A stretch of 64,000 nt of DNA from Tenericutes bacterium MZ-XQ (GTDB lineage Bacteria; Bacillota_I; Bacilli_A; Acholeplasmatales; Acholeplasmataceae). The notes beneath the pieces were generated by a model. It saw nothing but the letters and a program-made list of their open reading frames with translations. It was not told where the DNA came from and did not search any database. Shown here in pieces: positions 26,896-35,823 of this stretch (positions are counted from its first letter, which is position 1; every line of letters starts with the position of its first letter). The stretch lies in assembly GCA_002838205.1 (NCBI GenBank), contig CP017950.1:1-64000 (forward strand), in the 5' to 3' direction. The position numbers and the translations under genes are program-made.

Positions 26896-26909
26896 CATGT
26901 TTAAATGAC

Positions 26910-26942
26910 AAATACACTTTAGTTAATAAGGTGTATTTTTTT
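26910..26942 (+). terminator. spoVG terminator
   Basis: AAATACACTT (26910-26919) pairs with AGGTGTATTT (26929-26938, one G-U), followed by more Ts. Confidence 0.8.
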
Positions 26943-27027
26943 GTATGCACACACTGAAAAGATGACTTCAAAGTTTATTTCACATTTCACAGCAAAATAA
27001 ACTCTTTTTTACTTTTAATAAAAACAA

Positions 27028-27057
27028 AAAAACTCAGTTGATCAATACTGAGTTTTT
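27028..27057 (-). terminator. Heliorhodopsin gene terminator
   Basis: AAAAACTCAGT (27028-27038) with ACTGAGTTTTT (27047-27057), an 11-bp stem flanked by A/T runs on both strands. It serves the minus-strand gene ending at 27101 and can also stop stray plus-strand transcripts. Confidence 0.8.
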
Positions 27058-27100
27058 AAAATTTACAATCAAAATATTATTATATGATAATCTAGTGGGA

Positions 27101-27934
27101 TTAAGGTTGGAATGCACCAAATAATACTAACCAGGTTAAGATTGTCTTAGCAACTAATGATAAAACGATATATCCACGTTCACCATATAAGTAATTCTTA
27201 AACTTACCAATACCCTTATATTGAAGATACATGTTGACTGGGAATGTGTTAAATGCTAAGAAGTAAGTAACTAAAATAGCCCATACAAATCCTGGAACAG
27301 CATCTAAGTTTGGATTAACACCAATATAGAACACGATTGCTAACCATGGCGCAATACCAATAACAGAACCGAAGATAAATGGTAACCAGTTAGTCTTCTT
27401 TTCAGTTTTGTTTTCGCCGCTGTTTAGTAATTCCATATCTAAACCGAATAAGTTCATAGCAGCATTAGCTAAAGCAATTAAAACGAACACTGCGATATCT
27501 CTTACACCAAATAATGATGAAATTAAAACAATCATTAAAGATGAACTTATCGCATATTCATACCATCTAAGTTTGTTAATGCCTTTTTTAAGATCACTGA
27601 CATATTTATCTTTATAAGGGAATGCGATAATGAAATGAAAAATACCAGAGATCAGTAAGAAACTTGCTGTTAATGGTAAGAATGGTAATTCAAACAATGT
27701 GTCCGTTGGTGTTAGTACTAAACCTTGACCTTGAACGAACTCTAGATAATTTCCAATAACTGGAATGGTGAATGATTGTGTTCCACTACCATCTAAGTTA
27801 GGATAAATTAAAAAAGCAAATAACATCATGAGCACACCTTGCGCTAAGTGCACTGATCCCATGATTTTGTTAAAACGAATTAAACTAGGGAATGATAACT
27901 TATCATTCATTGTTTTTGCAGAATCCATAATCAA
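27101..27934 (-). CDS. Heliorhodopsin (retinal-binding seven-helix photoreceptor)
   Basis: 277 residues, seven predicted membrane helices. The last helix reads YIVLSLVAKTILTWLVLFG, with Lys263 at the retinal Schiff-base position. RWYEY (123-127) supplies the conserved Arg and the counterion Glu126, spaced three apart as in the model heliorhodopsin 48C12 (Arg104/Glu107). His29 (GSVHLAQG) and His100 (GIFHFIIAF) match the two internal histidines of the family. Heliorhodopsins differ from type 1 rhodopsins by inverted topology and a long photocycle; their role is debated. RBS AAAGGAG is at 27936-27943 on the minus strand. It diverges from a MATE gene. No retinal-making gene is visible in the window. 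It is not a permease: no transporter motif is present. Confidence 0.88.
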   Translation of the reverse strand: MIMDSAKTMNDKLSFPSLIRFNKIMGSVHLAQGVLMMLFAFLIYPNLDGSGTQSFTIPVIGNYLEFVQGQGLVLTPTDTLFELPFLPLTASFLLISGIFHFIIAFPYKDKYVSDLKKGINKLRWYEYAISSSLMIVLISSLFGVRDIAVFVLIALANAAMNLFGLDMELLNSGENKTEKKTNWLPFIFGSVIGIAPWLAIVFYIGVNPNLDAVPGFVWAILVTYFLAFNTFPVNMYLQYKGIGKFKNYLYGERGYIVLSLVAKTILTWLVLFGAFQP

Positions 27935-27964
27935 ACTCCTTTTATTTATTGATTTGCCTAAATA

Positions 27965-27991
27965 TTATCACAGTTTATATTTTTTATCAAC
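27965..27991 (-). promoter_or_regulatory. Candidate heliorhodopsin promoter
   Basis: On the minus strand TTGATA (27991-27986) and GATAAT (27970-27965) are separated by 15 bases, shorter than ideal. Nothing better is seen between the gene and its divergent neighbour. Confidence 0.4.
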
Positions 27992-28059
27992 AAATTAGAA
28001 TTTTGAAGGAACTAAACAATTTGCCAAATTAGAAGATGAAACCGTTTTATAGATTTTAA

Positions 28060-28108
28060 TTGATTTTTTTAAATAAATTAATGATATAATACATTGGAAA
28101 TTAGGTGT
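28060..28108 (+). promoter_or_regulatory. MATE gene promoter
   Basis: TTGATT (28060-28065), 19-base spacer, extended -10 TGATATAAT (28082-28090). The ribosome-binding site TTAGGTGT lies at 28101-28108. The start at 28115 therefore fits better than the in-frame ATG at 28094. Confidence 0.65.
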
Positions 28109-28114
28109 TATAAT

Positions 28115-29443
28115 ATGAAAAAATTAGAAAAAAATATATATAAATTGTCATGGCCTATATTTATTGAACTGCTCTTTTTTACTTTACTTGGAACAGTAGA
28201 TACCATTATGTTATCAAATTACTCGGATACGGCTGTTGGTAGTGTGGGGATTGCAAATAGGATATTGTTTTTGTTTGCAATTGTTGTCAATGTTTTGGCT
28301 TTAGGTATTGGTGTCGTTGCAGCCCAGTACTTAGGTGCGAATCAAGAACAAAAAGCGAAAGATACAGTTGTTACTGGAGTTTTAGGTAATTTTGTTCTAG
28401 GTGTAATCCTTTCTCTTGTTGTAATGTTTTTTGGAAGAAGTTTTATACATATGATTGGTACAGATGAAGTATTTATAGAAGATGCATCAACATATATTAA
28501 AATCGTTGGATTTTCTTTATTGTTTGTATCTATTCGTGTAGGACTATCTAACGCTTTTAGAAGCTTCAGCCATCCAAAAGTTGTTATGATGATTATGGGT
28601 GTCGGTAACTTAGTTAATGTTGTAGTTAATGCTGTACTTATATATGGTTTATTTGGTGCTCCTTCTTTAGGTGTTCAAGGTGCAGCTATCGGAACTCTCG
28701 TTGCAAGAATCGTCATGGTGTTATTACTCATTTATTTTGCATATAAATTATTAAAAATAAAACTTCACAAGTTGAGATTTCACATCATTCAACTTAGAAA
28801 AATATTATATGTAGGTATACCTGGAGCAACCGAAAATGTTCTTTACAATATAGCTCAAGTACTCATATTATTTTTTATTAATCAAATTAGTCCAGAAGCA
28901 GTTATTGCACAATCATATATCATGCTCATCTTATCGTATGTATTTATTTTTAGTTTTGCACTGGCGAGTGGTAACTCAATTATTGTGGGTTACTACATCG
29001 GTGAAAGAGAGTATGATATTGCATTTAAACATACGTTTAAAACCACAAGAGTTGCATATGTATTAATTTTTGTTATTGTAGGGGCTGTTAACTTGTTAGC
29101 TTATCCTATGATTGCTTTATTAACAGATGACCCGGTTATTACTGAGATGGTAAGAAAAGTACTATATTTTGCAATTTTTATTGAGTTAGGACGTGCACTA
29201 AACATGATATTTATTGCTGCATTACGCTCAGCTGGAGATACGATTTTCCCAGTGATCATGGCTGCCATATCGATGTTTGGATTTGCAGTATTATTTACAT
29301 ATATATTAGCAATCCGATTAGAAATGGGCATTTTGGGTGTTTTTATTGCATTATCCATGGATGAGATATTTAGGGGGCTGTCAATGGTCTTTAGGTGGTA
29401 TCAAAGAAAGTGGATGCGCATTGAACTTATTGAAGCGGCTTAA
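28115..29443 (+). CDS. MATE-family efflux transporter
   Basis: About 442 residues with twelve hydrophobic segments in two similar halves, the MatE layout. The N-terminal half has WPIFIELLFFTLLGTVDTIMLSNYSD and the second half IPGATENVLYNIAQVLILFFINQ, both characteristic. MATE proteins export drugs and metabolites using Na+ or H+ gradients. The substrate cannot be told. It is divergent from the heliorhodopsin gene, with 180 bases between them; shared regulation is possible but unproven. Confidence 0.93.
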   Translation: MKKLEKNIYKLSWPIFIELLFFTLLGTVDTIMLSNYSDTAVGSVGIANRILFLFAIVVNVLALGIGVVAAQYLGANQEQKAKDTVVTGVLGNFVLGVILSLVVMFFGRSFIHMIGTDEVFIEDASTYIKIVGFSLLFVSIRVGLSNAFRSFSHPKVVMMIMGVGNLVNVVVNAVLIYGLFGAPSLGVQGAAIGTLVARIVMVLLLIYFAYKLLKIKLHKLRFHIIQLRKILYVGIPGATENVLYNIAQVLILFFINQISPEAVIAQSYIMLILSYVFIFSFALASGNSIIVGYYIGEREYDIAFKHTFKTTRVAYVLIFVIVGAVNLLAYPMIALLTDDPVITEMVRKVLYFAIFIELGRALNMIFIAALRSAGDTIFPVIMAAISMFGFAVLFTYILAIRLEMGILGVFIALSMDEIFRGLSMVFRWYQRKWMRIELIEAA

Positions 29444-34896: not shown

Positions 34897-35823
34897 ATGC
34901 CCAAGTTCAAAATATGTTCACTTTGTGGTACAGTTAATTCTACAATCAAGCATGGTCGTACTAAGAATGGTAAACCGAGATTTAAGTGTAAATCTTGTAT
35001 GGGAACTTTTATACAAGACGAATCTACAACAAGTTACTTAAATAATAGTGATTACATCTTCAAAAGATTTATTGGATTTATGATTGATGATGTAACTTTA
35101 GAAGTAATCGCAAGAAACCTAAGCATTGATATAAAGACAGCTTTATATTATCGATACCTTATCTTCGAATCTTTAAGAGATTACCAAGATGAGGTATTTT
35201 TGAATGGAACTATTCTAGTAGATGAGACTTTCGTCAGAATAAGTGATAAAAGATATAAACTGGTTAGACGTGATGGTAAGGGGATTAGAGGGATTTCATT
35301 TAATCATCTTTGCGTGATTACTTTGATAAGTTTAGAAGGAATAACTATAGCTAAAGTGTCATCAAGAGGAAACGCTTCACCAAAAAAGTTTATTGATTTA
35401 TGTACAAAAAACATTGGAGAAGTGACTAAATTTATCCATGATGGATCGGTAATACAGAAACAATTTATGCGTCAATTTAGTGTCCCTAATTATGATGCAC
35501 GCAGAGAATGTGATGGAAAATACAATACACTTTTAGTAGATTCATTACATAGCAATATAAAAAGATACTTATTCAAGCACGCAGGATATCGTCTAAAAAA
35601 TCTACAACATTACATGAATTTTTTCGTTTATAGATATAATCATACGCCTAAATCAAAACACATTAACAGTCGTCAAATTATTGAAAGCAGGAATTCTATG
35701 ATTGATGATTTATACAGAAGAGTTAAAAAGATAAAAAAGAGAATCACTTATAGAAATTTCCAAAGTGATCCTGGAATTACGGATGTACTAGAATCAGTGA
35801 GTAGTGATTATTATGAAAAATAA
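34897..35823 (+). CDS. IS1595-like transposase
   Basis: 308 residues. An N-terminal zinc ribbon (CSLCG then CKSCMG) and helix-turn-helix region are followed by a DDE-type catalytic domain: VDETFV, FIHDGS and a late LHSNIKRYL that matches the Asn-Lys signature of the IS1595 group. The frame is intact. Start ATG 34897 follows CTAAGGAG. The gene runs into the right terminal repeat, and its last 20 bases overlap the new reading frame into the aminotransferase. Assignment to IS1595 rather than a related zinc-ribbon family is likely but was not verified by database search. Confidence 0.85.
   Translation: MPKFKICSLCGTVNSTIKHGRTKNGKPRFKCKSCMGTFIQDESTTSYLNNSDYIFKRFIGFMIDDVTLEVIARNLSIDIKTALYYRYLIFESLRDYQDEVFLNGTILVDETFVRISDKRYKLVRRDGKGIRGISFNHLCVITLISLEGITIAKVSSRGNASPKKFIDLCTKNIGEVTKFIHDGSVIQKQFMRQFSVPNYDARRECDGKYNTLLVDSLHSNIKRYLFKHAGYRLKNLQHYMNFFVYRYNHTPKSKHINSRQIIESRNSMIDDLYRRVKKIKKRITYRNFQSDPGITDVLESVSSDYYEK

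What the first reader, a model, noticed from the sequence alone, without database searches (positions are those of the whole stretch)
27101..27934. Heliorhodopsin in a wall-less mollicute-like genome
A seven-helix protein carries the heliorhodopsin hallmarks: Schiff-base Lys263 in helix 7 (LSLVAKTILTW), Arg123/Glu126 with the same spacing as Arg104/Glu107 in 48C12, and both internal histidines (His29, His100). A light sensor in a fermentative, wall-less organism, often found as a surface or host saprophyte, is unexpected. MEP-pathway genes in the window show isoprenoid supply, and Acholeplasma is known to make carotenoids, but no carotenoid-cleaving enzyme is visible here. The gene may sense light, act with scavenged retinal, or have a retinal-independent role.
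Basis: partly seen in the sequence, partly recalled or inferred. Interest (0 to 1): 0.85.

Follow-up and report, generated by a model that had tools for sequence, protein, structure and literature searches.

The report
Heliorhodopsin in a wall-less bacterium
A wall-less, Acholeplasma-type bacterium carries a complete and selectively maintained gene for a heliorhodopsin, a light-sensing protein, although no known enzyme for making its retinal pigment was found; in its relatives this gene sits in a conserved light-protection cluster beside a DNA-repair photolyase and a tocopherol-cyclase-like protein that the literature searched does not link to heliorhodopsins.

Summary
ORF 27101-27928 (minus strand, ATG start) is a true heliorhodopsin (HeR): Pfam E=5e-85, NCBIfam equivalog above cut-off, predicted fold matching solved HeRs (TM 0.87-0.94), and Schiff-base Lys261, Arg121/Glu124, His27 and His98 invariant in 105 HeRs. 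It evolves under strong purifying selection (dN/dS 0.03).

It is not an isolated oddity. The host's family is Acholeplasmataceae, and 36 of 160 genomes of the order carry a clear HeR. In 26 distinct genomes HeR is followed, 25-71 nt downstream on the same strand, by a PF14249 tocopherol-cyclase-like gene. A class II photolyase is usually divergent to it, sometimes with carotenoid and phytol-kinase-like genes. The window's genome keeps the photolyase and tocopherol-cyclase-like genes side by side at 2.01 Mb but has lost the HeR between them. It carries instead a foreign-clade HeR between spoVG and a MATE gene.

No phytoene synthase or RPE65-type oxygenase was found here (controls positive), nor Blh (no positive control), so retinal must be scavenged or made by an unknown route. 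Best reading: a horizontally acquired, retinal-binding light sensor that replaced the ancestral one and works in photoprotection and photorepair. HeR-photolyase pairing is known; the HeR-tocopherol-cyclase pairing appears undescribed.

The parts
27101..27928 (-).
   Evidence: Pfam PF18761 E=4.6e-85; NCBIfam NF038020; AF2 fold match to 6is6/6su3
27146..27148 (-). Codon of the Schiff-base lysine K261 (SLVAK, helix 7; S257/K261 is the SxxxK motif)
   Evidence: Invariant in 105 of 105 HeRs; aligned with the SLVAK lysine of TaHeR
27557..27568 (-). Codons R121 to E124 (RWYE): equivalents of the Arg/Glu counter-ion pair of 48C12 and TaHeR
   Evidence: Invariant in 105 of 105; E124 aligns with the residue changed in the TaHeR E108D entry 7clj
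27936..27940 (-). Ribosome-binding site AGGAG, 7 nt before the ATG
   Evidence: Sequence
27962..27990 (-). Promoter-like site TTGATA-17-TAATAT with TG before the second hexamer
   Evidence: Consensus scan; sites no commoner than in shuffles (10 found, 8.3 expected), so weak
27028..27057 (-). Intrinsic terminator-like hairpin after the HeR stop, which would make HeR a single-gene transcript
   Evidence: 1 found, 0.3 expected in shuffles
26896..28114 (.). Segment between spoVG and the MATE gene that holds HeR; sisters G022, G024 and G025 have no HeR here
   Evidence: Empty-site comparison, L158-L160; present in G023
28115..29443 (+). MATE-family transporter, divergent to HeR; neighbour of HeR in G000 and G023 only, so not evidence of shared function
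   Evidence: ORF list; synteny. The MATE name is from sequence reading; no profile was run

Best explanation
The gene encodes a genuine retinal-binding heliorhodopsin that serves as a light sensor or regulatory rhodopsin in a member of the Acholeplasmataceae. In many relatives the HeR lies in a light-protection cassette with a class II CPD photolyase, a tocopherol-cyclase-like protein (PF14249) and, in some genomes, carotenoid and phytol-kinase-like genes. In the window's lineage the cassette HeR was lost and replaced by a horizontally acquired HeR of another clade, inserted as a self-contained gene between spoVG and a MATE gene. It most likely works as shown for Trichococcus HeR: light absorbed by retinal changes the shape of the protein and, by contact, raises the activity of the photolyase or other photoprotective enzymes, here encoded at 2.01 Mb. 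The chromophore would be scavenged or made by an unknown route. Shown: identity, intact pocket residues, purifying selection, the relatives' cassette, the replacement pattern, no match for known carotenoid or retinal genes. Inferred: retinal binding in the cell, contact with photolyase, the role of the tocopherol-cyclase-like protein.
For: Family and fold and invariant pocket residues. dN/dS 0.028 between the HeRs of G000 and G023. Cassette in relatives: HeR then PF14249 with a 25-71 nt gap on the same strand in 26 distinct genomes, class II photolyase (TIGR00591) divergent. HeR x PF14249 co-occurrence in the family: 29 of 33 HeR genomes against 4 of 55 others, odds ratio 92, p=8e-15. Own photolyase and PF14249 gene side by side without HeR (L060). 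The own PF14249 gene groups with the HeR-adjacent ones of its genus (98% SH-aLRT), while the own HeR falls in a different clade (100/99) whose nearest member outside the genus is a 'Candidatus Izimaplasma' MAG. Empty insertion site in three sisters. All four family genomes with a free-standing clade-A HeR and PF14249 lack the cassette HeR, against 25 of 29 others that have it (p=0.002). Trichococcus HeR with class II photolyase in one operon and improved repair: PMC9769723.
Against: In this genome HeR is not linked to the photolyase. No retinal source was found, so the protein might be colourless in the cell. Photolyase regulation rests on one published case in another genus. The co-occurrence and replacement p-values are not corrected for shared ancestry; the replacement pattern stands for about two independent events.
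Confidence: 0.55

Rival explanations
1. HeR is functionally paired with the tocopherol-cyclase-like protein: that protein processes or carries the chromophore (scavenged carotenoid or retinoid), or is itself a prenyl-lipid enzyme under HeR's light control, and the photolyase is only a co-regulated neighbour.
For: It is HeR's most constant neighbour, same strand with a 25-71 nt gap in 26 distinct genomes, also in Bacilli and one Clostridia MAG. It is retained in genomes without phytoene synthase, this one included. Its model (pLDDT 93) resembles enzymes on hydrophobic substrates: Fsa2, Phm7, kievitone hydratase, AttH.
Against: In family f4 the same gene lies beside crtI-PSY-phytol-kinase-like-DUF92 with no HeR next to it (L164, L167, L172, L173), so it has a role without HeR. 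No substrate is known. Five HeR genomes of the order have no PF14249 match.
Confidence: 0.25
2. The protein works without retinal, as an apo-opsin or by binding another ligand.
For: No known carotenoid or retinal gene found in this genome, nor phytoene synthase in any of its four sister genomes; no Blh over cut-off in 160 genomes of the order or in 50 other HeR-bearing genomes.
Against: Lys261 and all other residues checked are invariant in 105 HeRs. Aurantimicrobium minutum forms functional rhodopsin without known retinal genes (PMC7734400), so missing genes do not prove missing retinal. The Blh model rang in no control.
Confidence: 0.12
3. A recently acquired gene with no stable role (a selfish or transient passenger).
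For: Horizontal clade, insertion at an otherwise empty site, broken HeR copies in other genomes of the order (G003, G006, G148).
Against: dN/dS 0.028 with dS 0.72 between G000 and G023: long-lasting purifying selection in this lineage.
Confidence: 0.05

Closest known systems
Heliorhodopsins 48C12 and TaHeR (PDB 6su3/6uh3 and 6is6/7u55)
   Same: Fold (TM 0.87-0.94), Schiff-base lysine, Arg/Glu pair, internal histidines
   Different: About 38% identity; host is a wall-less member of the Acholeplasmataceae; no known retinal-forming gene found in the genome
Trichococcus flocculiformis HeR with class II CPD photolyase (PMC9769723)
   Same: HeR associated with a class II photolyase (TIGR00591-type) in the family cassette
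   Different: Here the cassette also has a PF14249 gene and sometimes crtI, PSY and DUF92; in the window's genome HeR lies far from the photolyase
Znf-HeRs of Thermoplasmatales beside carotenoid and photolyase genes (PMC8612252)
   Same: Neighbourhood theme: carotenoid synthesis plus photolyase
   Different: No zinc ribbon (only PF18761 matched); bacterial; a PF14249 partner is not mentioned there
[quoted passage not shown]
   Same: Photolyase and DUF2177 genes occur near HeR in relatives
   Different: A tocopherol-cyclase-like partner is not among the ten groups
Tocopherol cyclase family PF14249 and the AttH/kievitone hydratase/Fsa2 fold (the partner gene, not the window gene)
   Same: Pfam match in all 25 tested; all-beta double-barrel fold
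   Different: Substrate unknown; no other tocopherol-pathway gene was seen in the cassette beyond phytol-kinase-like and DUF92 genes

Membership tests
Heliorhodopsin (PF18761 / NF038020) | Profile match above the curated cut-off | tested here: met
   285 bits against 26.7; 264 against 100
Heliorhodopsin (PF18761 / NF038020) | SxxxK in helix 7 with the Schiff-base lysine | tested here: met
   S257/K261 in model helix 246-272, invariant in 105
Heliorhodopsin (PF18761 / NF038020) | Arg/Glu pair and two internal histidines | tested here: met
   R121, E124, H27, H98 invariant
Heliorhodopsin (PF18761 / NF038020) | Seven helices and HeR fold | tested here: met
   Seven long helices with strands between the first two; TM 0.87-0.94 to HeR structures
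Heliorhodopsin (PF18761 / NF038020) | Inverted topology (N terminus inside) | not tested
   Expected from homology only
Heliorhodopsin (PF18761 / NF038020) | Binds retinal and has a photocycle | not testable with these tools
   Needs purified protein; the retinal pocket was judged by conserved residues and fold, not by distances in the model
Type-1 microbial rhodopsin | Closest fold and sequence among type-1 rhodopsins | tested here: not met
   Type-1 structures score TM about 0.5-0.6 against 0.8-0.9 for HeRs; no type-1 Pfam match
HeR-class II photolyase operon as in Trichococcus | HeR and photolyase in one locus | tested here: not met
   Not met in the window genome (27 kb against 2.01 Mb); HeR lies next to a divergent photolyase in sisters G022, G024 and G025
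Tocopherol cyclase PF14249 (partner gene of the cassette) | Profile match above the curated cut-off | tested here: met
   81 bits against 26.6 for the own gene; 25 of 25 relatives match at E<=0.01
Tocopherol cyclase PF14249 (partner gene of the cassette) | Cyclises a prenyl-quinol to a chromanol | not testable with these tools
   Substrate unknown

The most novel reading that the evidence does not exclude
HeR and the tocopherol-cyclase-like protein form an undescribed two-gene functional unit in bacteria without known retinal synthesis: the double-barrel protein either supplies or converts a scavenged carotenoid or retinoid for HeR, or is a membrane-antioxidant enzyme switched by HeR in light. 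The unit is embedded in a photorepair/carotenoid cassette of wall-less bacteria, and this genome is a natural replacement experiment in which a foreign HeR took over from the lost cassette HeR.
Probability: 0.25. Interest if true: 0.8.

Novelty: new member of a known kind. Interest (0 to 1): 0.55.

Why it matters
What heliorhodopsins do, and where HeR-bearing bacteria without known retinal genes get their pigment, are open questions. This lineage makes both testable: a small wall-less genome, HeR kept under strong selection without known pigment genes, relatives with HeR next to a photolyase and a tocopherol-cyclase-like gene, and an apparent replacement of one HeR by another that argues for a needed function. 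In the held papers I found none that mentions heliorhodopsin with tocopherol cyclase or with Tenericutes.

Tried and rejected
Blh absence is therefore weaker than PSY and RPE65 absence. MATE gene as HeR partner: rejected, the pairing occurs only in G000 and G023. Shared regulatory motif between the HeR promoter and the photolyase/PF14249 promoter: upstream sequences were printed and looked at by eye only; nothing obvious. Host species: Mariniplasma was guessed and looked up but could not be tested; only the family is supported. PDB sequence relatives of the PF14249 protein: none significant. Phytol-kinase-like naming of the 220-aa cassette protein rests on a sub-threshold PF01148 match. The model's coordinates were not open to me, so pocket distances around K261 were not measured.

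Full report
Observation. The ORF at 27101-27928 (minus) is a heliorhodopsin. Pfam PF18761 gives 285 bits (cut-off 26.7), NCBIfam NF038020 264 bits (cut-off 100), and the best sequence relatives of known structure are all HeRs. The AlphaFold2 model from 28 family members (pLDDT 86.2) superposes on HeR crystal structures with TM (target) 0.87-0.94 and on type-1 rhodopsins with about 0.6. The gene has a terminator-like hairpin and a weak promoter-like match, so it looks self-contained.

Host. The window is the start of a single 2.157 Mb contig, 99.98% complete. Genome G025 of the same genus is base-for-base identical, over its 16,199-base contig, to the record 'uncultured Acholeplasmataceae bacterium isolate OKU6', so the family is Acholeplasmataceae, described as peptidoglycan-deficient (PMC10868615). 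I did not test for cell-wall genes.

Distribution. Of 160 genomes of the order, 41 gave a PF18761 match at E<=0.001 and 39 passed the cut-off; I count 36 with a clear HeR (two of them interrupted by a frame change or stop), three that are broken remnants and two sub-threshold matches. HeR in this group is therefore common, not a single odd transfer. HeRs are published as restricted to monoderms, Firmicutes included (PMC8612252).

The cassette. Comparing neighbourhoods of up to 20 kb shows a recurring arrangement: HeR followed on the same strand, after 25-71 nt, by a 320-aa protein of Pfam PF14249 (tocopherol cyclase) in 26 distinct genomes, with a class II CPD photolyase (TIGR00591-type) divergent. 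In some genomes phytoene desaturase (TIGR02734), phytoene synthase (PF00494), a 220-aa phytol-kinase-like protein (sub-threshold PF01148) and DUF92 (PF01940) lie between. From my own knowledge, DUF92 is the family of plant VTE6, phytyl-phosphate kinase. HeR and PF14249 co-occur in the family with odds ratio 92 (p=8e-15, not corrected for ancestry). In family f4 the PF14249 gene sits beside crtI-PSY-kinase-DUF92 without HeR. In Erysipelotrichaceae and related MAGs HeR lies near phytol-kinase-like, DUF92 and crtI genes, in L104 and L110 with PSY as well, and in L110 next to an ABC1-type kinase. So the isoprenoid and photoprotection theme recurs outside this order.

What happened in the window's lineage. 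Sisters G022, G024 and G025 hold a clade-B HeR between photolyase and PF14249 gene and no HeR at the window site after spoVG. G000 and G023 hold photolyase and PF14249 side by side (L060, L161) with only about 220 bp between, and a clade-A HeR at the spoVG site. The PF14249 gene of G000 and G023 stays within its genus (98% SH-aLRT), while their HeR belongs to a 22-member clade (100/99) whose nearest member outside the genus is a 'Candidatus Izimaplasma' MAG. G034 and G045 show the same state, apparently independently: cassette HeR gone, clade-A HeR elsewhere. Overall 0 of 4 genomes with a free-standing clade-A HeR keep a cassette HeR, against 25 of 29 others (p=0.002, about two events). With dN/dS 0.028 between G000 and G023, this reads as replacement of one HeR by another under continuing need.

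Chromophore. The genome gave no match for phytoene synthase (7 controls positive), RPE65-type oxygenase (2 controls positive) or Blh (no positive control). None of the five genomes of the genus has phytoene synthase, yet all have HeR. Blh was not found over cut-off in 160 genomes of the order, 392 of the phylum or 50 other HeR-bearing genomes, but the model rang in no control. Functional rhodopsin without known retinal genes has been shown in Aurantimicrobium (PMC7734400), so this does not make the HeR non-functional; scavenging or an unknown route is inferred.

Mechanism. The nearest tested precedent is Trichococcus HeR, in one operon with a class II photolyase, with which it interacts and whose repair it improves (PMC9769723). 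The family cassette has the same pair, and the window's genome keeps a class II photolyase at 2.01 Mb. I therefore favour a light-sensing, protein-regulating role in photorepair and photoprotection. The tocopherol-cyclase-like partner is a confident all-beta model (pLDDT 93.3) whose fold relatives are enzymes on hydrophobic compounds (Fsa2, Phm7, kievitone hydratase, AttH; TM about 0.5-0.6). It may make or carry a membrane-protecting isoprenoid or HeR's chromophore; this is open.

Novelty. The gene is a new member of a known family. Photolyase and carotenoid neighbours of HeR are published (PMC9769723, PMC8612252, PMC11109279). The tocopherol-cyclase-like partner is not among the published neighbour groups I could read, and no held paper has both terms; supplementary tables could not be read, so it may be listed there.

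Noticed in passing
G000:C1:2011788-2014341 (L060:10088-12641): Class II photolyase and tocopherol-cyclase-like gene, divergent, with the HeR of sister species missing between them; a transposase-like ORF lies just beyond the photolyase.
   Followed up: yes
window 34897-35823: Transposase-like ORF interrupting synteny with G023, clustered by sequence with the transposase-like ORF beside the photolyase in L060; a mobile element that may be active in this genome.
   Followed up: partly
L110 9962-12114: In an Erysipelotrichia MAG, HeR is followed by an ABC1-family kinase (PF03109) amid crtI, PSY, phytol-kinase-like and DUF92 genes. From my own knowledge, plant ABC1K kinases act on tocopherol cyclase in plastoglobules, a parallel worth a look.
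   Followed up: partly
L062, L063, L064, L065, L057, L069: A third, divergent HeR clade (42-46% identity to the window's); in G025, G029, G034, G044, G082 and G083 it is present beside another HeR in the same genome.
   Followed up: partly
L068, L070, L071: Broken HeR remnants with internal stops in G148, G006 and G003, showing repeated loss in the order.
   Followed up: no
NZ_CP141705.1 4149-4922: A HeR (50% identity) on a 10.5-kb Lactococcus petauri plasmid, a possible vehicle for HeR transfer.
   Followed up: no
L164, L167, L172, L173: Tocopherol-cyclase-like gene divergent to crtI-PSY-phytol-kinase-like-DUF92 without HeR or photolyase in family f4: a separate conserved prenyl-lipid unit.
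   Followed up: partly
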